DNA of 64,000 nt, from positions 2,486,501 through 2,550,500 of the forward strand of contig NZ_CP107811.1 of the NCBI RefSeq assembly GCF_036346105.1. Direction: 5' to 3'. Below the pieces are notes generated by a model. The model had not been told where the DNA came from. It saw only the letters and a program-made list of their open reading frames with translations, and searched no databases. Shown here one piece after another: positions 1 through 7,082 of this stretch. Each line of letters opens with the position of its first letter. The first letter of the stretch is position 1. The stretch comes from Streptomyces sp. NBC_00539 (GTDB taxonomy: Bacteria > Actinomycetota > Actinomycetes > Streptomycetales > Streptomycetaceae). Both the position numbers and the translations under genes were made by a program.

Positions 1-1965
1 CTCCGCGTCCGGTACGTCCGCGGCCAGGGCCCGCTCGTACAGCACCTTGCCCCGCGCCGCCCGGGCCGACGGGCTGCCCAGCCCGGTCAGGGTCCGCTCG
101 GCCTCCGCGAGCAGCTCCGGGTCGCGCTGGAGCGCCCACAGCCGAAGCAGCGCACCCGCGAGTTCCAGCTCGGCCTCCTCCGCCGCATCGGCGGGGCCGG
201 GCGGCGCCGACACGGCCCGGCGCAGCAGGGTCACGGCCTCGTACAGGCCGCGCCGCCCGCCCTCGGTGATCCGGGCCCGGGCCGTCCGTACGGCCCACTC
301 CCGGGCGGGCGCGGCGGGCGGCGGTTCGGTCTCCGGCCCGTCGGGCGGCGGCCCGGGCAGGTAGCGGCGCACGACCTTCGCCGAGACCTGGGCGAAGGCC
401 TGCGGGAGGCGGCCGGCGGGCACCCGTTCGCCGTCGGGCTCCAGGGGGGCGCCGGTCAGCTGCGAGACGGCGAGGGCCGGGAAGTTGCGCACGCCCCGCC
501 CGAAGTGGGCCCGTACGTACGCGGAGCAGTGCTTGAGCACCAGTGCGGCCTCGTCCCGGCCGAGCGGCCCCAGCAGCACGTCCTGCACGCCGGGGGTGAA
601 CTCGTACCACCCGGCGTCCGGCGCGCGCCGCAGCAGTCCGCTCAGCAGCACCTCGGCGAGGTCGGAGGGTTCCGAGTCGGGCAGCATCGTGCGCTGTACG
701 AGCCGCATCACGGGCAGTGTCAGGGGGGCCGCCGCCAGGTACAGGGCGAGTTGCACCGCGCCGGGCGCGGCCGAGGAGCGGAAACGCTGTACGAGCTCCC
801 GCGGCGGCCGTGCGGCCCGGGGCGGGGGTTCGGCCCCGGCGGGGTGGCGGGGCAGTACCCGCCCGACCTCGGCCGGTACGGGCCCGGTCCCGAGCCCTGC
901 GACGAGGCGGGCCCAGGCGCCGAGGGCGGCGGCGTTCGGCGGGAGCACGGGCACGGTGAGCCCGCCCGTGGGGCGCCCGGGCCGGGGCGGCCGGTCCGGG
1001 TGGAACTCCAGCTTGCGGGGGCCGCCTTCCGTACGGGTCAGCACCCCGCGCTCGGTCGGCAGCCGGCTGCGGTTCCACAGGCGCTGCGGCAGCGGCTGCA
1101 CCACCGCGCAGGGCGTGCACTGGGCCCACCGGTACAGCAGGCGCTGCGCCCGGCCCTCCCGCCACACGGGCCCGGCGCAGTCGGAGACGACCATGGTCAG
1201 CGCCCGGCCGGTGGGGTCGCGCACCTGGTCACCGGAGCGGAGCCCGGCGGTGGGGTGCGGGCCCCGGCCGACGGCGACGGCGCCGTCGGCCGACCGGTGC
1301 AGGTAGTAGACCTGGACGTCGCGGAAGGCCCCCAGCCGTTCGCACACGGACCGCAGTTCCTCGAACATGTCGTGCCACACCGCCATCGACGGTGAGGCGT
1401 CCATGACCAGGCGTACGGTCGCCTCGCGCCGGCTCTCCGGCCGGAACACCGGGATGACCAGCCCGAGGGCCCGGGCGCTGGCCTCGGCGGTGGCGGCCTC
1501 GTCGAGGACGGTCCGGGTGGGCGGCCCGGGCGGCCGGTGCCGCTGGAGGGCGCGCAGGGCCCGCTGGATCTCCAGGACCCTGGGCAGCGCCGCCGCGCCG
1601 GGCACCCGTACGGGCACCCCGCCCGCGGCGGGGAGTTCCGCGTCGCCGTCCGCCGTCCCGCCGCCCCTGGTGGCGTACAGCCGGACCGCGTCCCGCGGAT
1701 CGGGCTCTTCCCGTACGGGGTCCTGCGCGCGCGGGGCCGCCTCCTGCGGGCCCGCCTGCGGTCCGGGCCCCGGTGCCGGCTCCCGGACCGGGGCGTCACC
1801 GGCGTCCGGCGCCCCGGCCGGCCCCCGAGTCCGCCCGGCGAGCCACAGCGCGTCGGCGAGCTCCTCGGCGGACGGGTCGAGCCCGGCGCCCCGCAGCAGC
1901 GCGGCGAGGTCGCGGATGGGCTCGGCCGGGGGCACGGGGGCGGGGGCGGGGGGCACGGGCGTCAC
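1..1965 (-). CDS. SAV_2336-type protein with vWA/MIDAS domain (partial, C-terminus beyond window)
   Basis: Open minus-strand frame running off the left edge; the first 655 codons are present. The GTG start overlaps the stop of the MoxR gene as GTGA, implying translational coupling. A Pro/Ala-rich N-terminal linker is followed near residue 187 by V-M-D-A-S-P-S, a DxSxS metal-ion-dependent adhesion site (D189) of a von Willebrand A-like domain. A helical region ending the window part, near residues 560-655, looks TPR-like. Size, order and partners match the Streptomyces 'SAV_2336 N-terminal domain-related' family. In vWA-MoxR-VMAP ternary systems the vWA protein is thought to be a MoxR client or partner; its role here is inferred. 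Family assignment is from recalled resemblance and the MIDAS motif. The true C-terminus is not visible. Confidence 0.8.
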   Translation of the reverse strand, partial: MTPVPPAPAPVPPAEPIRDLAALLRGAGLDPSAEELADALWLAGRTRGPAGAPDAGDAPVREPAPGPGPQAGPQEAAPRAQDPVREEPDPRDAVRLYATRGGGTADGDAELPAAGGVPVRVPGAAALPRVLEIQRALRALQRHRPPGPPTRTVLDEAATAEASARALGLVIPVFRPESRREATVRLVMDASPSMAVWHDMFEELRSVCERLGAFRDVQVYYLHRSADGAVAVGRGPHPTAGLRSGDQVRDPTGRALTMVVSDCAGPVWREGRAQRLLYRWAQCTPCAVVQPLPQRLWNRSRLPTERGVLTRTEGGPRKLEFHPDRPPRPGRPTGGLTVPVLPPNAAALGAWARLVAGLGTGPVPAEVGRVLPRHPAGAEPPPRAARPPRELVQRFRSSAAPGAVQLALYLAAAPLTLPVMRLVQRTMLPDSEPSDLAEVLLSGLLRRAPDAGWYEFTPGVQDVLLGPLGRDEAALVLKHCSAYVRAHFGRGVRNFPALAVSQLTGAPLEPDGERVPAGRLPQAFAQVSAKVVRRYLPGPPPDGPETEPPPAAPAREWAVRTARARITEGGRRGLYEAVTLLRRAVSAPPGPADAAEEAELELAGALLRLWALQRDPELLAEAERTLTGLGSPSARAARGKVLYERALAADVPDAE

Positions 1966-2975
1966 CTCGGCCGGTCGAGGCGCTGGATGAGCAGGTCGGC
2001 GAGGTCCTCCCGGGTGGGCGGGGCGGCGTAGTGGGTCAGGTAGATGGCGTTGAGCAGTTGGTCGGCGGCGACCAGTTCGGACTGCGAGCGGCTGAGGAAC
2101 TCCCGGATCAGCTCGGCGCCCAGCTGGGCGGCCTCCTCCCCCAAGTGCGCCCGCACCAGGGTGGCGAGCCGTTTCTCGCCGGGCTGGCCGAGCTTGAGCT
2201 GGATGCACCGCCTGAGCAGCGCGGCGGGGAAGTCCCGTTCGCCGTTGCTGGTCAGGATGATGAAGGGGAAGGCCCGGCAGCGGATCCGGCCGTCCCGGAC
2301 GGTCACTTTGGTGCCGTCGTCGGTGAGGACCCGTACCTCGGGTTCGGAGTCCGCCACCCGTTCCAGCTCGGGGAGGGTGAACTCCCCCTCCTCCAGCACG
2401 TTGAGGAGGTCGTTGGGGAGGTCTATGTCGCTCTTGTCGAGTTCGTCGATGAGGAGCACCCGGGGGCGCGCGGTGGGCAGCAGCGCCGTCCCCAGCGGTC
2501 CCAGCCGGATGTACTTCCCGATGCCGGGCGCCGCGCCCTCGGCCGCTCCCCCGCTGGCGGCGATCTGTACGTCCTGCAGGCGCGCTATGGCGTCGTAGCG
2601 GTAGAGCCCCTCCTGGAGGACCGTGCGCGAGACGACGGGCCAGCGCAGGACGCGGCCCAGTTTCAGTTCGTGGGCGACGGCGTGCGCGAGGGTGGACTTC
2701 CCCGTTCCCGGGTAGCCCGTCACGAGCAGCGGCCGCCGCAGGTACAGCGCGGCGTTGATGGCCTCCAGCTCCTCGGGTTCGGGGCGGTGCAGCTCGGCGG
2801 CCTGCCGGTGCGCGCCGAGGCGGCGGGCCACGTTCTCGTCGGGGGTGCCCGCGGCTCCCGGGCCGTCCGCGACGGGACCGCCGTCGAAGTCCCGCCAGGG
2901 CGGCGGGTCCGGCAGGGCGTCGATCCCGTCGTGGGGGTCCCCGACGCCCCGGTAGATGAGCCACTCCTCGGTCAT
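1962..2975 (-). CDS. MoxR-family AAA+ ATPase
   Basis: 337 residues, normal for a MoxR ATPase. Walker A is GYPGTGKST at residues 87-95 and Walker B is VLLIDELDK at 173-181; a sensor-like LTSNGERDFP with downstream Arg residues follows. MoxR ATPases act as chaperones that remodel vWA-containing partners. Here the gene lies between a trypsin/VMAP-like gene (93 bp upstream) and a vWA gene that it overlaps by 4 bp, the expected arrangement for a vWA-MoxR-VMAP module. An ATG start is used. The leader just upstream contains imperfect copies of the start-site sequence (see findings). Cytosolic, with no membrane segments. Confidence 0.93.
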   Translation of the reverse strand: MTEEWLIYRGVGDPHDGIDALPDPPPWRDFDGGPVADGPGAAGTPDENVARRLGAHRQAAELHRPEPEELEAINAALYLRRPLLVTGYPGTGKSTLAHAVAHELKLGRVLRWPVVSRTVLQEGLYRYDAIARLQDVQIAASGGAAEGAAPGIGKYIRLGPLGTALLPTARPRVLLIDELDKSDIDLPNDLLNVLEEGEFTLPELERVADSEPEVRVLTDDGTKVTVRDGRIRCRAFPFIILTSNGERDFPAALLRRCIQLKLGQPGEKRLATLVRAHLGEEAAQLGAELIREFLSRSQSELVAADQLLNAIYLTHYAAPPTREDLADLLIQRLDRPR

Positions 2976-3033
2976 GTGCCCGCCCCCTCGATCATGTGCC
3001 CGCGCCCCTCGGCCATGGGCCCGCCCCTGCGTG
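2966..3033 (-). repeat. Imperfect triplication of the moxR ribosome-binding/start region
   Basis: On the minus strand three consecutive copies of a roughly 22-nt unit (GGGCACATGAYCGAGG-like) are present, each with a purine-rich stretch, GGGC and ATG. The third copy supplies the start codon of the MoxR gene. The upstream ATGs open only a 14-codon frame that terminates across the true start (ACATGA), so they could act as a short upstream reading frame. Confidence 0.55.
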
Positions 3034-3068
3034 GTCGATCCGGTGGTGTCCCGCCGGACGCGTGCCCC

Positions 3069-5171
3069 TCACAGGTCGCCCTGCAACGGTTCGTCCTCCG
3101 GGAGCGGCCGCCGCGGGTCCTGCCACAGCAGCGCCGTCCCCACCGCCCAGTACGCGTCCGGGTCCGCCCCGTACGCCCGTCCCCGCAGCGTCTGGAGCCG
3201 GGCCGGGAGCACCGCTCCCCGTCCGGCTTCGGCCAGTTCCTCGCGCAGGCCGCGGTGGAACGGTTCGCAGGACGCCCTGGGGTCGGCCGGGGGCCGGCGG
3301 CACACCACCACCCCGTACCCGGCGTCCCGCGCGTCGTGCAGCATCGCGAGCGTCGGGTCCTCGCCCGCGGCCCGGCACAGCACCGGCACCGTGTGGTCCA
3401 CCAGGGCGGCCAGCCACCCGGGCGCCGGGCGCCACTTGCGGCCCCGCGAGCAGTCGGCCCGCCGGTCCAGCAGCGGGCCCGCCTGCACCCTCGTCCACCG
3501 CTCGGCGGCTTCCGCGGGCGGGTCGCCGCCCGGGTGGCGCAGCACGACCGGCCGCTGCACGCCGACCGGGACCCCGCCCGACACCGTCCACTCGTCCACC
3601 GGGAGCCCGAACAGCTCCTCCGCCACGACCACCTCCAGCAGCGCGGCCGCCTCGTGGGTGTCGCACCGCCGGAACCCCTCGGCGAGCGGGGCCCGCACCG
3701 CCTCGGGCAGGTCCGCCAGCGTGACCCGGGTTCCGGAGGCCACCGGGGTCGCCTGCCCGGGCCGGTCCGGGCCGGCCAGGACGGAGACCCGCCAGTCGTA
3801 GACGTCCTCCCACACCTGGGCCCAGGCCTCCAGCAGGACCGACGGCGCCGGGGGCGGGAGTCCCACGGCCGGGCGGAAGGGACCGTGCACCATCTGCCCG
3901 GCCGAGGTGCGCCGGCGCCGTTCACGTTCCGCGAGGCCGCGTTCGTGGCGCTCGCCCAGTTCGCGGCGCAGCGGCCGCCACAGCCGCGCGGCGGTGGCCC
4001 GTACCCAGTCCCACAGTTCCTCGTCGGCGCCGGGCGCGGGCGGCTCGCGGTGGTCGGCGACGCTGACGTCGGTGGCGTAGCGCAGCATCGCGGCGGCCTC
4101 GCCGCCGGTCCCGGGCGGGTCGTGGAGCAGGCCGAGTCCGTCGCGCCAGGTCAGCGGGGCCGGTAAGCCCGTGTCGGGTTCGTCGCCGCGGGCGGCTTCG
4201 GCGAGGGCGCGGACGGCCTCGGAGGAGCCGGGCGGCGGCAGTTCGGCGAGCAGACCGCACAGGGTGGTGCGTTCGCCCGGGGTGAGGCGGGTGAGACGGC
4301 TGAGGCGGGTGGGGCGCTCAGGTCCGCCGTTGGTGTCCTCGTCCTCCGAGGGCAGCTCGTCGTGGACGTCCGTCCAGGTGCGGCGGCTGTCCAGGTCGCT
4401 GACGTGCTGGTCGTAGTGGTACAGGTCGTGGCCCTGCATCACCCGCCGGTACAGGCCGACCTGTCCGGTCGGGCCCGTCGGCAGGGTCCGCAGCTGGGCC
4501 ACCGACACCGCGATGCCCCCGCCGCCCGCCTGCCGGCGGGCCTTGACGATCCCGATGACCTCGCCGCGCGCCAGGTCCACCAGGGGGCCGCCGGACATGC
4601 CGGGTTCGATCTCGTCGTCGTCGCCGAGGCGGATCGCCGCGCCGTTCGCGGCGGTGCCGCGCAGCCGGGTGGTGCGGCCGGTGATCTCCCGTACCCCGAG
4701 GTCCTCGGTGACGCCGAAGTACGCGGCCTCGTCGAGGCGGGGCCTGGCCCGGTCGGTGAGGTAGACGCAGGCGTGCGAGATGGGCGCGAGTACCCGTACG
4801 AGGGCCAGGTCGGGCAGGTCCCACAGGGCGCGCGGGGCGGGCCGGCGTTCCTCCAGCCGTTCCGGCAGTACGCATTCCACGCGGCCGGCGACCGTGCCGG
4901 TGGCTCCCGCCGCCCCGGGGGAGCCGGCGACGGAGAAGGTGATGCCGACCTCGCGGCCCGCCAGACGCACCGCAGCACCCCCTTCGCCGATCACGTGGGC
5001 ACACGTGAGGACCCACCCGGGGGCGATGAAGAAGCCGCTGCCCCAGGTCGGACCGGTCCCAGGGGTTCCATACCCGTCCGCGGGCGCGTGGACGCGTACG
5101 GTGGCCGCCTTGACGAGGGGTTCGAGAAGCTCGAAGGCGCGCGCGGAGCCGCCCGTGCGCCCGTCCGGCAT
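3069..5171 (-). CDS. Trypsin-like serine protease with VMAP-C-like C-terminal region
   Basis: 700 residues. The N-terminal 230 residues form a trypsin/HtrA-type fold with an intact catalytic triad: His59 (LTCAHVIG), Asp121 (DLALVRV) and Ser193 (PGMSGGPLVD). There is no signal peptide, so the protease is cytosolic. Residues of about 280-400 are a Leu-rich helical segment reminiscent of effector-associated domains. The last 280 residues resemble the C-terminal domain of vWA-MoxR-associated proteins (VMAP-C), ending in ALLWQDPRRPLPEDEP. The gene heads a cluster with MoxR and vWA genes. By analogy with described ternary conflict systems the protease would be the effector released by MoxR/vWA signalling; this is inference. 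The start ATG has AGGGG upstream and a -10-like TAGCCT at 5206-5201. Confidence 0.85.
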   Translation of the reverse strand: MPDGRTGGSARAFELLEPLVKAATVRVHAPADGYGTPGTGPTWGSGFFIAPGWVLTCAHVIGEGGAAVRLAGREVGITFSVAGSPGAAGATGTVAGRVECVLPERLEERRPAPRALWDLPDLALVRVLAPISHACVYLTDRARPRLDEAAYFGVTEDLGVREITGRTTRLRGTAANGAAIRLGDDDEIEPGMSGGPLVDLARGEVIGIVKARRQAGGGGIAVSVAQLRTLPTGPTGQVGLYRRVMQGHDLYHYDQHVSDLDSRRTWTDVHDELPSEDEDTNGGPERPTRLSRLTRLTPGERTTLCGLLAELPPPGSSEAVRALAEAARGDEPDTGLPAPLTWRDGLGLLHDPPGTGGEAAAMLRYATDVSVADHREPPAPGADEELWDWVRATAARLWRPLRRELGERHERGLAERERRRRTSAGQMVHGPFRPAVGLPPPAPSVLLEAWAQVWEDVYDWRVSVLAGPDRPGQATPVASGTRVTLADLPEAVRAPLAEGFRRCDTHEAAALLEVVVAEELFGLPVDEWTVSGGVPVGVQRPVVLRHPGGDPPAEAAERWTRVQAGPLLDRRADCSRGRKWRPAPGWLAALVDHTVPVLCRAAGEDPTLAMLHDARDAGYGVVVCRRPPADPRASCEPFHRGLREELAEAGRGAVLPARLQTLRGRAYGADPDAYWAVGTALLWQDPRRPLPEDEPLQGDL

Positions 5172-5200
5172 CCCCTGCCCCCCTCAGGTCGAGTCTGTCA

Positions 5201-5206
5201 AGGCTA
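5201..5206 (-). promoter_or_regulatory. Possible -10 box for the protease-MoxR-vWA operon
   Basis: TAGCCT on the minus strand lies 29 nt upstream of the protease ATG. No good -35 hexamer was seen at the expected distance, so the call rests on the -10 and on position only. Confidence 0.35.
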
Positions 5207-5292
5207 GCGCCGGGGCAGGGAGGACGGGAGGTGTCTGTGATACGCGGATTATCCTGGCGGGAAACACCCCCTCACGTCTTACGGAGCCGGAC

Positions 5293-5475
5293 TTGTACTT
5301 CACCGATCGCGGCATCGAGGAGCTGGAGAAGCGGCGCGGCGAGGAGGAGGTCACCTTCGAGTGGCTCGCCGAGCAGCTCCGCACCTTCGTCGATCTCAAC
5401 CCGGACTTCGAGGTCCCGGTGGAACGCCTGGCGACCTGGCTGGCCCGCCTCGACGACGCCGAGGACGACGAGTAA
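5293..5475 (+). CDS. DUF6104 family small protein
   Basis: 60-residue acidic protein of unknown function, recognised as the small actinobacterial protein annotated DUF6104. It begins (TTG) L-Y-F-T-D-R-G-I-E-E-L-E-K-R. The TTG start is chosen because the family starts at this YFTDRGIEEL block and a CGGAG purine stretch precedes it. The frame stays open further upstream, but that part overlaps the divergent protease gene and has no family resemblance. Predicted mostly helical and cytosolic. A -10-like TATCCT lies about 40 nt upstream. It is followed by a strong terminator shared with the convergent sodN gene. Confidence 0.85.
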   Translation: MYFTDRGIEELEKRRGEEEVTFEWLAEQLRTFVDLNPDFEVPVERLATWLARLDDAEDDE

Positions 5476-5493
5476 CCCACCCCCGCGTACGCC

Positions 5494-5527
5494 GAAGGGG
5501 CCCGACCGTCACCGGTCGGGCCCCTTC
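5494..5527. terminator. Bidirectional terminator between DUF6104 gene and sodN
   Basis: A perfect 15-bp inverted repeat GAAGGGGCCCGACCG / CGGTCGGGCCCCTTC with a 4-nt loop lies between the two convergent stop codons. Confidence 0.9.
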
Positions 5528-5562
5528 TGCACCGGGCTGCTCCATCGGGCCGGGGGCCCGGA

Positions 5563-5958
5563 TCAGGCGGCCTTGGTCTCCCAGAAGATGCGGTCGATCT
5601 CGGCGATGAGTTCGAGGGCCTTCTGGCCGGTCGCCGGGTCGTTGGACGCCTTCGCGGCCGAGAGGGCCTTGAGGGTGTCGTTGACCAGGGTGTGCAGCTG
5701 GGGGTACTTCTCGAAGTGCGGCGGCTTGAAGTAGTCGCTCCACAGCACCGAGACGTGGTGCTTGGCGAGCTCGGCGCGCTGCTCCTTGATGGTGATGGCG
5801 CGCGCGCGGAAGTCGGCGTCCTCGTTGGCCTGGTACTTCTCCTGTACGGCCTTGACCGACTCGGCCTCGATGCGGGCCTGGGCCGGGTCGTACACGCCGC
5901 ACGGCAGGTCACAGTGGGCGGAGACCTTCGCCTTGGGGGCGAAGAGGCGGGTAAGCAT
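5563..5958 (-). CDS. sodN: Nickel superoxide dismutase
   Basis: 131 residues, the usual length of actinobacterial NiSOD. A 14-residue leader (MLTRLFAPKAKVSA) precedes the nickel hook HCDLPCGVY. After leader removal His1, Cys2 and Cys6 bind nickel and the enzyme dismutates superoxide to peroxide and oxygen in the cytosol as a hexamer. The leader must be removed by the SodX protease, encoded divergently next door. The ATG has a GAGGAGG ribosome-binding site. The promoter region shows TAATCT as a -10 about 40 nt upstream, inside a GCGAG-ATTA-CTCGC inverted repeat. In S. coelicolor sodN is activated by nickel through Nur; no clear Nur box was recognised here. Confidence 0.97.
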   Translation of the reverse strand: MLTRLFAPKAKVSAHCDLPCGVYDPAQARIEAESVKAVQEKYQANEDADFRARAITIKEQRAELAKHHVSVLWSDYFKPPHFEKYPQLHTLVNDTLKALSAAKASNDPATGQKALELIAEIDRIFWETKAA

Positions 5959-5992
5959 GGAGTTTGTCCTCCTCGTGATCGTCTTCTCAAGG

Positions 5993-6006
5993 GCGAGATT
6001 ACTCGC
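5993..6006 (-). promoter_or_regulatory. sodN -10 region within a short inverted repeat
   Basis: GCGAG-ATTA-CTCGC is a perfect 5-bp dyad whose centre contains TAATCT (minus strand, 6001-5996). That is a plausible -10 box 38 nt before the sodN ATG. The dyad may be an operator or an early transcript hairpin. Confidence 0.4.
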
Positions 6007-6129
6007 TCGGGATGCGGAATTCGCGGGCGGCCCCGTGGGCTTCGGACAAAAGTCCAGCGTCGTGCCGGCGGCGGTGAGCGAACCTACGGCGGCGTGCGGC
6101 AGCATGCGGGTGGGACGAGGAGGTCGTAC

Positions 6130-6549
6130 ATGGTGGACAGGGCGCGCCAGGGCGGGCAGTTCGGGCTGGCCGAGGTGTCGGGGCCCTCGATGGTCCCCAC
6201 CCTGCTGCACGGGGACCGGCTGGTGGTCCGCTACGGGGCGCCCGTGCGCCCGGGGGCCGTGGTGGTGCTGCGGCACCCCTTCCAGCAGGACCTGCTGGTG
6301 GTGAAGCGGGCGGTGGAGCGGCGGCCGGGCGGCTGGTGGGTGCTGGGTGACAACCCGTACAACGCGACCGGCGACAGCACCGACTACGGGACGGTGCCCG
6401 AGGAACTGGTGCTGGCGACGGCCGTGCTGCGGCTGCGGCCGCCGCCCGCCGGTCAGCGCTCGCTGAGGGCGCGGCTGTCCTGGGCGGTTTCGGCGCTGCG
6501 GCCGCTGCGCGCGGACTCCTCGGCCTCCAGCCGCTTGCGGGCGCGGTAG
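6130..6549 (+). CDS. sodX: NiSOD maturation peptidase (signal-peptidase-like)
   Basis: 139-residue S26-family protease. It has the catalytic Ser in V-S-G-P-S-M (Ser20) and Lys in VVKRAV (Lys59), plus the GDNPYNATGDS box of type I signal peptidases. There is no transmembrane anchor, as in the NiSOD-associated subfamily that trims the SodN leader in the cytosol. The ATG start is preceded by AGGAGG. It is transcribed divergently from sodN, whereas in many genomes sodX follows sodN co-directionally. Its last 97 bp overlap the 3' end of the convergent CGNR gene, so its Arg-rich tail is encoded opposite that gene's end. Confidence 0.93.
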   Translation: MVDRARQGGQFGLAEVSGPSMVPTLLHGDRLVVRYGAPVRPGAVVVLRHPFQQDLLVVKRAVERRPGGWWVLGDNPYNATGDSTDYGTVPEELVLATAVLRLRPPPAGQRSLRARLSWAVSALRPLRADSSASSRLRAR

Positions 6550-7082
6550 GCCGCCACGTTCGCCCGGGTGGCGCAGCGGTCGGAGCAGTAGCGCCGGGAC
6601 CGGTTGGTGGAGGTGTCGAGGTAGGCGTTGCGGCAGGGCGCCGCCTGGCACAGGCCGAGCCGGTCGGGGCCGTGCTCGGTGAGGTGGAAGGCCAGCCCGA
6701 AGGAGGCGAGGGCGGCGTATCCCGCGGAGGCGTTCGAGGGGTGATCGGCGAGGTGGATGTGCCAGTGGGGGCGGCCGTCCTCGTCGAGCGAGTCGTGGCC
6801 GGTCACCTGGGGGCTGACCGGGAACTCCATCAGCAGGGAGTTCAGCAGGTCGACGGCGAGCACGTGGTCCCCGCCGTCGGCGGCCTCGAAGACGGAGCGC
6901 AGCCGGCCCCGGACGTTGCGGAAGCGCGTGACGTCGGCGTCCGTGACGCGGCGTGCGGCCTGGACCCCGGCGCCGAAGAGGGCGCGTACGGCGTCCACCG
7001 AGGTGAGGGCGTCCTTGTTGCGGGCCGGCTCCTCGGTGTTGACCAGGCGCACGGCGTAGTCCGAGTAATGGGCCAGTTCCAC
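6453..7082 (-). CDS. CGNR zinc-finger / ABATE-domain transcriptional regulator
   Basis: 209 residues. The N-terminal part is the stress-induced ABATE-type domain typical of these proteins. The C-terminus has the CGNR zinc finger with C-X5-C, then N-x-Y-x-D-x-S-x-N-R-S-R-R-Y-C-S-x-x-C, followed by ATRANVAAYRARK. Proteins of this family are putative nucleic-acid-binding regulators; no target is known. A GTG start matches the conserved ELAHYSDYAVRLVNT opening. It overlaps the sodX 3' end by 97 bp in antisense, so simultaneous transcription could interfere. Confidence 0.9.
   Translation of the reverse strand: MELAHYSDYAVRLVNTEEPARNKDALTSVDAVRALFGAGVQAARRVTDADVTRFRNVRGRLRSVFEAADGGDHVLAVDLLNSLLMEFPVSPQVTGHDSLDEDGRPHWHIHLADHPSNASAGYAALASFGLAFHLTEHGPDRLGLCQAAPCRNAYLDTSTNRSRRYCSDRCATRANVAAYRARKRLEAEESARSGRSAETAQDSRALSER

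What the first reader, a model, noticed from the sequence alone, without database searches (positions are those of the whole stretch)
1..5171. Trypsin/VMAP-like, MoxR ATPase and vWA-type SAV_2336 protein in one operon
Seen: a cytosolic trypsin-fold protein with an intact His59-Asp121-Ser193 triad fused to a VMAP-C-like region, a MoxR AAA+ ATPase with intact Walker motifs, and a protein with a DxSxS MIDAS at D189, in that order with a 4-bp coupling between the last two. Known: vWA-MoxR-VMAP ternary systems were proposed from comparative genomics as NTP-dependent conflict or defence systems. Inference: MoxR/vWA gate the protease, which would cut a host target on invasion. Its trigger and substrate have no obvious description.
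Basis: partly seen in the sequence, partly recalled or inferred. Interest (0 to 1): 0.75.

Follow-up and report, generated by a model that had tools for sequence, protein, structure and literature searches.

The report
Protease-ATPase-peptide conflict operon in Streptomyces
This is a member of a predicted bacterial immune-like system in which an ATP-driven switch is thought to control a protease and a home-made modified peptide; in Streptomyces it sits at one fixed chromosome spot that different species fill, empty or swap, much like an immune-gene locus.

Summary
The trio is real: an HtrA-like trypsin fused to VMAP-C, a MoxR ATPase, and a vWA/SAV_2336 protein. The window edge cuts the operon. 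Four more genes follow on the same strand: an FxSxx-COOH peptide (FxsA), a cyclophane-forming radical-SAM enzyme (FxsB), an HExxH enzyme (a family now named alpha-ketoglutarate peptide hydroxylase) and a TIR-NTPase-TPR protein (FxsT). This is the FxSxx-type VMAP ternary system that Kaur et al. (2020) predicted by comparative genomics, so the kind is known; I found no functional test. What I add: (1) the operon occupies one fixed site, between kgd and DUF6104, occupied in 54 (plus 9 contig-cut) and empty in 38 of 119 genomes read; (2) three operon types are each one clade on their own MoxR tree but scattered on the host's kgd tree, so types replace one another at this site; (3) the peptide's tail changes with the maturase set; (4) the protease triad is intact in 75 of 75; [quoted passage not shown] Defence is plausible, not shown.

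The parts
3069..5171 (-). VMAP protein, 700 aa: HtrA/DegS-like trypsin domain (about 1-243; triad H59, D121, S193), variable all-helical middle (about 240-427), VMAP-C (456-686)
1962..2975 (-). MoxR-clade AAA+ ATPase, 337 aa, with the N-terminal WLIYRG and PPWRDF motifs reported as peculiar to VMAP-system MoxRs
   Evidence: AAA_5 E 3.2e-8; W5, G10, W27, R28, K93, D177, E178 in 76/76; motif forms from Kaur et al.
1..1965 (-). vWA/SAV_2336 protein, 1056 aa, first 655 codons only in the window (the gene runs 1206 bases past window position 1): helical N-extension, linker, Rossmann-like vWA with D189 and D262, C-extension, TPR-like superhelix
   Evidence: NF041121 458.8 bits; model of the S. cirratus relative, 92% identical over the best tblastn segment; TPR matches by Foldseek
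5275..5475 (+). DUF6104 gene, the fixed left neighbour of the operon; not a member. Outside the window, same strand as the operon and downstream of it (locus L002 coordinate = window + 14000): FxsA 64-aa peptide ending FDSGVV (L002 12700-12506), FxsB radical SAM (12394-11117), HExxH protein (11120-9867), FxsT TIR-NTPase-TPR (9793-6791), then kgd on the other strand (2732-6670), the fixed right neighbour
   Evidence: PF19599 E 3.8e-36; NCBIfam TIGR04268 40.5 bits (cut-off 28), TIGR04269 442 (370), TIGR04267 139 (40), NF040586 830 (300); map

Best explanation
It is an FxSxx-type VMAP ternary conflict operon of seven genes. Shown by sequence and comparison: gene content and order, intact catalytic motifs, a fixed site with gain, loss and type replacement. 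Inferred: FxsB joins Phe59 to Ser61 of the FxsA peptide in a cyclophane and the HExxH enzyme hydroxylates it (probably Asp60), giving a small intracellular ligand. The MoxR ring with the vWA-TPR protein forms an ATP-driven switch that holds the HtrA-like VMAP protease inactive; an invader (or the change it causes) bound by the variable helical middle of VMAP or by the TPRs triggers remodelling. The protease then cuts a partner within the system, most likely the vWA-TPR protein or the peptide precursor, and this releases or presents the modified peptide to FxsT, whose TIR domain acts as the terminal effector (NAD depletion and arrest or death of the hyphal compartment). The step from peptide to FxsT is the least certain.
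For: Identity: VMAP-C, Trypsin_2, AAA_5, NF041121 and the four Fxs families all pass their curated cut-offs, and the set equals Kaur's FxSxx subtype: TPRs alone fused to the vWA protein, a radical-SAM/SPASM gene, and a separate TIR-AP-ATPase gene downstream of the peptide genes. Unity: 41 of 41 loci keep the six large genes in the same order and strand. Selection for catalysis: triad 75/75, MoxR residues 76/76, HExxH His/Glu/His 70/71, 71/71 and 71/71. Regulated protease: the VIA-align list is HtrA/Deg-type proteases, with DegS stress sensors near its top; Foldseek mixes these with tPA, plasmin and factor D. Chemistry: the enzyme MscB joins Phe C4 to Ser C-beta (passages of PMC11002830; that MscB is of the FxsB family is recalled), and an HExxH domain beta-hydroxylates Asp/His only after cyclophane formation (passages of PMC12636437). 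Peptide tails follow the maturases: [FY]-x-[NS] plus 2-3 residues ends 37 of 44 peptides of FxsB+HExxH loci and 0 of 16 of HExxH-only loci; Y-x-D is in 10 of 11 tails of FxsB-only loci and 1 of 16 of HExxH-only loci. Conflict-like evolution: fewest occupancy changes on the kgd tree 30; three types need 2 changes on the MoxR tree but 16 on the kgd tree.
Against: No experiment on a VMAP system turned up in the listings or in the passages opened. PADLOC lists only weak, generic hits, so it is not a catalogued defence system. The TIR Glu90 is not fixed: 70 of 86 overall, and Ala in 7 of 14 FxsB-only loci (5 full, 2 contig-cut), so NAD cleavage cannot be general. No Trypco gene is next to it although trypsin-type VMAPs often have one. 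The VMAP protein has no phage match and one weak plasmid match, so nothing ties it to mobile defence islands. The kgd tree is weakly supported: starred branches alone force only 8 changes for the empty state and 3, 2 and 4 for the three types. Fast divergence and turnover also fit competition or kin-recognition roles.
Confidence: 0.5

Rival explanations
1. Kin or self recognition / interference competition rather than phage defence: the modified peptide is a signal or toxin specific to the operon type, and FxsT plus the ternary complex is the cognate receptor or immunity.
For: Three types with matched peptides at one site, replaced between species, many species lacking it at that site (38 empty of 119), association with multicellular bacteria (Kaur section 9).
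Against: In the window's own locus the seven genes and kgd fill the stretch with gaps of 111 bp or less inside the operon, leaving no room for a transporter gene; other loci were not searched for one, and no signal-peptide or membrane prediction was run.
Confidence: 0.2
2. Housekeeping stress control: MoxR-vWA acts as an assembly chaperone and the HtrA-like protease as a quality-control enzyme, linked to neighbouring oxidative metabolism (kgd, nickel superoxide dismutase).
For: MoxR-vWA pairs do act as chaperones elsewhere (Kaur section 8); the site is beside core metabolic genes; HtrA-like fold.
Against: The site is empty in 38 of 119 genomes, with 30 changes at the fewest on the kgd tree. 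VMAP falls to a median 38% identity in 32 distant full loci, while the best kgd C-terminal matches stay at 72-99% and DUF6104 at 84-98%. Position next to sodN is not fixed.
Confidence: 0.12
3. The protease acts on a host or phage protein directly, and the peptide genes are a separate, merely co-located biosynthetic unit.
For: VMAP occurs without peptide genes: at this site 4 of 54 occupied loci have VMAP, MoxR and vWA but no full-length FxsT, FxsB or HExxH match; Actinacidiphila L236 is a further case. Conversely L120 and L154 have the Fxs genes without the trio.
Against: The Fxs gene set is clade-consistent with the MoxR gene (2 changes on MoxR and FxsT trees), and 41 of 41 VMAP-selected loci keep all.
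Confidence: 0.15

Closest known systems
VMAP ternary system, FxSxx peptide-processing subtype (Kaur, Burroughs, Iyer and Aravind, eLife 2020, PMC7159879; sections 8, 9, 12, 19, 24, 35 part 1 and 36 read, plus passages)
   Same: Gene order VMAP-MoxR-vWA; trypsin at the VMAP N-terminus; TPR-only vWA tail; FxSxx peptide; radical SAM/SPASM; HExxH gene; separate TIR-AP-ATPase-TPR gene
   Different: No neighbouring Trypco gene; the HExxH gene, called a metallopeptidase there, belongs to a family NCBIfam now names a peptide hydroxylase; the paper ties diversity and the 33% chromosomal position to arm recombination, whereas here one fixed insertion site accounts for the position
Triceptide (three-residue cyclophane) RiPPs, FxsB branch (PMC11002830, passages read)
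   Same: FxSxx-COOH precursor and FxsB family maturase over the cut-offs
   Different: Here the cluster is embedded in a ternary ATPase-protease-STAND operon; the C-terminus is FDSGVV, one residue longer than FxSxx
HtrA/DegS regulated serine proteases
   Same: Same fold by VIA-align and a Ser-His-Asp triad
   Different: No PDZ family listed by Pfam; fused to VMAP-C; signal peptides were not tested
DGR-diversified VMAP systems of Thiohalocapsa and cyanobacteria (PMC10907252, passages read)
   Same: Ternary core with trypsin VMAP
   Different: Diversity there by targeted hypermutation; here by whole-operon replacement at one site

Membership tests
VMAP ternary system | VMAP-C domain at the C-terminus of the first protein | tested here: met
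   PF20028 E 2.5e-33, residues 456-686, full profile
VMAP ternary system | Gene order 5'-VMAP-MoxR-vWA-3' | tested here: met
   Window and 40 of 40 fetched relatives
VMAP ternary system | MoxR N-terminal motifs WxhapG and PsWRxa | tested here: met
   WLIYRG and PPWRDF; W5, G10, W27, R28 in 76/76
VMAP ternary system | vWA with two metal-site aspartates at the ends of strands 1 and 4 | tested here: met
   D189 in 77/78 and D262 in 77/78 readable rows; in the model of the L217 relative the equivalents D182 and D255 lie at or just after strands 176-182 and 248-253. That the fold is a vWA was not confirmed by a structure match: TPR hits filled the list
VMAP ternary system | vWA N-terminal extension motif [D/E]xxx[D/E]xxxa | tested here: inconclusive
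   The consensus helix reads E-x-x-x-D-x-x-W with D31 and W34 invariant in L217 numbering, one residue shorter than the published form
VMAP ternary system | Trypco1 or Trypco2 gene beside trypsin-type VMAP (frequent, not universal) | tested here: not met
   The only Trypco1 match in the genome is 4.2 Mb away; Trypco2 has no match
FxSxx subtype | FxSxx-COOH peptide gene | tested here: met
   TIGR04268 40.5 bits, cut-off 28; a sibling model, NF041709 YxD-tail, scores 43.2 but under its cut-off of 55; one extra C-terminal residue
FxSxx subtype | Radical SAM/SPASM maturase and HExxH protein | tested here: met
   TIGR04269 442 bits (cut-off 370); TIGR04267 139 bits (cut-off 40); CxxxCxxC at 64-71 and HEVQH at 274
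FxSxx subtype | Separate TIR-AP-ATPase-TPR gene; TPRs only on the vWA protein | tested here: met
   NF040586 830 bits; TIR_2 E 9e-20, TPR_12 E 3e-42, NB-ARC only E 5e-4 and under its cut-off; vWA tail a helical superhelix matching TPR folds, Pfam TPR only at E 0.08
Anti-phage defence system | Protects against phage or plasmid | not testable with these tools
   No convincing PADLOC family; needs infection assays

The most novel reading that the evidence does not exclude
The kgd-DUF6104 junction is a dedicated immune-allele site of Streptomyces. Each allele encodes an NLR-like TIR-STAND receptor plus its own enzyme-tailored peptide, and the peptide is an endogenous licence or guard that the HtrA-like protease and MoxR switch create or destroy on infection. 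This would be a RiPP-controlled STAND immune system whose specificity changes by swapping whole operons, much like R-gene or allorecognition loci.
Probability: 0.22. Interest if true: 0.85.

Novelty: new member of a known kind. Interest (0 to 1): 0.5.

Why it matters
These ternary systems were predicted in 2020 and I found no functional test in the library searched. A fixed site with natural empty, occupied and swapped states among close relatives gives ready-made comparison strains and a clean deletion design. If the peptide proves to be the controlling ligand, it would join two fields, modified ribosomal peptides and STAND-type immunity. It also replaces a chromosome-arm explanation for the systems' position with a specific, checkable site.

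Tried and rejected
VMAP-C fold: the whole-protein search was filled by trypsin-fold chains, so nothing can be said about VMAP-C. Sequence search of the vWA-protein profile against solved structures gave four weak hits to designed helical proteins. MoxR by sequence gave only weak Midasin and RuvB matches. Protease specificity from the S1-pocket position (E187, placed by eye): E or D in 40 of 75, otherwise mixed, so no prediction. Mobile carriage of the VMAP protein: no phage match, one weak 39%-coverage plasmid match. PADLOC hits to RT-Protease XI and IetA read as generic protease or ATPase similarity. Paper searches for FxsB with cyclophane (0 papers), FxSxx-COOH (2 papers, one relevant) and triceptide or FxS (swamped by fragile-X papers) gave little. 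The HExxH protein as a peptidase (Kaur) was set aside for the hydroxylase reading because of the NCBIfam name and PMC12636437 passages; that preprint also shows a relative with backbone cleavage, so cleavage is not excluded. In one search the three loci typed VMAP+MoxR+vWA+FxsT have an FxsT match of only about 31% coverage, probably the vWA protein's own TPR tail; L102 was set to empty by hand because its one vWA match lies about 17 kb from the site. The first parse used a wrong column and was redone. The papers and 100 other than those named as passages were seen only as listings.

Full report
On the minus strand the window carries a 700-aa protein with a trypsin-type domain and VMAP-C (PF20028 E 2.5e-33; Trypsin_2 E 2.8e-14), a MoxR AAA+ ATPase, and the start of a protein matching NCBIfam NF041121 at 459 bits against a cut-off of 200. 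The MoxR and third genes overlap by 4 bp. No Pfam vWA model fires on the third protein, so 'vWA' rests on NF041121, the two aspartates and a predicted Rossmann-like domain.

The window edge hides most of the system. The window lies at G000:C1:2486501-2550500. Fetching the flank shows that the third gene runs 1206 bases past the window start (1056 aa), followed on the same strand by a 64-aa peptide ending FDSGVV, a radical-SAM protein, an HExxH protein overlapping it by 4 bp, and a 1000-aa TIR-NTPase-TPR protein. All four pass NCBIfam cut-offs: TIGR04268 40.5/28, TIGR04269 442/370, TIGR04267 139/40, NF040586 830/300. For the peptide a sibling model (NF041709, YxD tail) has a slightly higher score but is under its own cut-off.

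This is a known, predicted kind. Kaur et al. (eLife 2020; I read sections 8, 9, 12, 19, 24, 35 part 1 and 36) describe VMAP ternary systems with this gene order, trypsin at the VMAP N-terminus, and a subtype in which an FxSxx peptide, a radical-SAM/SPASM gene and a separate TIR-AP-ATPase gene go with a vWA protein that carries only TPRs. The features I tested are met except a neighbouring Trypco gene (frequent, not universal in their account; the one Trypco1 match is 4.2 Mb away and Trypco2 has none) and the exact form of one vWA helix motif. Their HExxH 'peptidase' belongs to a family that NCBIfam now calls an alpha-ketoglutarate peptide beta-hydroxylase; passages of PMC12636437 support hydroxylation of Asp or His after cyclophane formation, and also show that a relative can cleave the backbone. 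Passages of PMC11002830 report a Phe C4 to Ser C-beta link by MscB; that MscB belongs to the FxsB family is my recollection.

A fixed site. VMAP-C occurs in 206 of 247 genomes of the window's genus, which is Streptomyces judging by its named relatives. The full VMAP protein matches at E 1e-70 in 47 of 247. Of the 46 hits other than the window's own I fetched 40; six (G028, G070, G112, G116, G147, G198) were left out, five of them starting within 5 kb of a contig end. All 40 plus the window's locus have VMAP, MoxR, vWA, FxsB, HExxH and FxsT matches in one order and strand (in L046 FxsB matches only in part), and DUF6104 upstream in 41 of 41. To remove the selection, I searched for kgd, the other neighbour: found in 120 of 121 genomes. 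Reading the DNA beside it for 119 of those 120 gave: 54 occupied (22 with all six large genes, 15 without FxsB, 12 without HExxH, 3 plus 1 with VMAP-MoxR-vWA but no complete Fxs genes, 1 without VMAP), 9 occupied but cut by a contig end, 38 empty (75-583 bp between kgd and DUF6104; one of them set by hand), 4 with a lone HExxH gene, 2 with FxsT fragments, 2 partial, 8 with other inserts, 2 unresolved. In two occupied loci (L108, L127) DUF6104 lies between kgd and the operon, and in several it is inverted. In the named set, chosen by VMAP similarity, DUF6104 lies upstream in 76 of 80; the other four contigs begin within about 100 bp of VMAP. The set includes three Actinacidiphila, one of which (L236) has no Fxs match.

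Gain, loss and replacement. On a 582-bp kgd tree of 120 genomes the occupied/not state (66 versus 52, two uncounted) needs at least 30 changes; well-supported branches alone force at least 8 for the empty state (I added G070 as occupied by hand). The window's clade of 11 holds seven full operons and four lone HExxH genes, one of which (L073) has Phe for the first His of the motif. In 49 genomes with one of the three main types, each type is one clade on the MoxR tree (2 changes) and the FxsT tree also needs 2, but the kgd tree needs 16 (shuffled mean 22; starred branches force 3, 2 and 4). So types have been replaced at one site. The kgd tree is short and weakly supported in many places, and recombination may carry kgd along; 16 and 30 are parsimony counts on that tree, not firm minima.

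Constraint inside. The triad is intact in 75 of 75 VMAPs, MoxR residues in 76 of 76, vWA aspartates in 77 of 78 each, while sequence diverges: medians over 32 distant full loci are VMAP 38%, HExxH 44%, vWA 44%, FxsT 51%, FxsB 59%, MoxR 74%. The MIDAS serines vary (S191 in 59, S193 in 55 of 78 readable rows). TIR Glu90 is present in 70 of 86 and replaced by Ala in 7 of 14 FxsB-only loci.

Peptides follow maturases. By profile search peptides were found in 44 of 48 loci with FxsB and HExxH, 11 of 14 with FxsB only and 16 of 20 with HExxH only (two more of the first group had been seen). The tail [FY]-x-[NS] plus two or three residues (WGFNNAF, AFDSGVV) ends 37 of 44 of the first group and 0 of 16 of the third; Y-x-D (YEDAP, YDDGP) is in 10 of 11 tails of the second group and 1 of 16 of the third. 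Many share a leader-like block (LPDL..LDL..LR). The seeds came from the three groups themselves, hits are stop-to-stop frames (at least one, L160, looks doubtful), and absence in the missing loci is not informative.

The one-third position. Kaur et al. [quoted passage not shown] In 54 of the 120 genomes, hand-listed for a kgd contig of at least 6.8 Mb, kgd lies at a median of 0.323 from the nearer end, 42 of 54 within 0.28-0.38. VMAP-C copies in these genomes (45 of 54 have one; four rows under the cut-off dropped, 91 rows merged to 87, two on other contigs left out) show the peak: 35 of 85 at 0.28-0.38, p 7e-6 against uniform. It belongs to copies within 25 kb of kgd (23 of 29); the other 56 have 12, p 0.45. 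The bin was chosen after seeing the kgd position, contig length stands in for chromosome length, and G079 and G068 have two copies near kgd.

Mechanism and status. The most likely reading is a conflict system in which a MoxR-vWA switch restrains an HtrA-like protease, and a cyclophane peptide links it to the TIR-STAND effector. Intact motifs and co-inheritance are supported; trigger, substrate and effector action are inferred. Kaur propose that the VMAP protease frees vWA-linked effectors; PMC10907252 (passages) has the vWA protein sensing and VMAP acting; the present data do not choose. I found no experimental test of a VMAP system in the listings or in the passages opened of PMC10910872, PMC10907252, PMC12839542, PMC8195603 and PMC9239279, and no mention of this site: 'DUF6104', 'oxoglutarate' and 'synten' do not occur in the Kaur text.

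Noticed in passing
G000:C1:5445738-5454198 (outside the window): A second FxsT gene with a long FxsB-type gene (open frame 761 aa) in the same genome. No VMAP-C lies there, as the genome has one VMAP-C match, and no second TIGR04267 match is listed.
   Followed up: no
L073, L074, L076, L077 (between DUF6104 and kgd): Four close relatives keep only the HExxH gene of the operon, as an almost full-length match; in L073 the first His of the motif is Phe. Decay or re-use is open.
   Followed up: partly
L143 (G007), insert between DUF6104 and kgd: The site holds a different large gene whose translation reads as trypsin-like followed by a P-loop NTPase (IAGMGGL), as if another conflict system used the same site; read by eye only.
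   Followed up: no
L120 (G109) and L154 (G014): FxsA, FxsB, HExxH and FxsT without MoxR, vWA or VMAP in a 15-kb segment, hinting that the peptide-effector half can stand alone.
   Followed up: no
window 5695-7082: Nickel superoxide dismutase gene and a CGNR zinc-finger regulator beside the operon. sodN is next to the site in much of the window's clade, but more than 10 kb from kgd in every other species in which it was seen.
   Followed up: partly
FxsT residue 90 in FxsB-only loci: The presumed TIR catalytic Glu (placed by eye) is Ala in 7 of 14 FxsB-only loci but Glu in 33 of 37 loci of the two HExxH-bearing full types.
   Followed up: no
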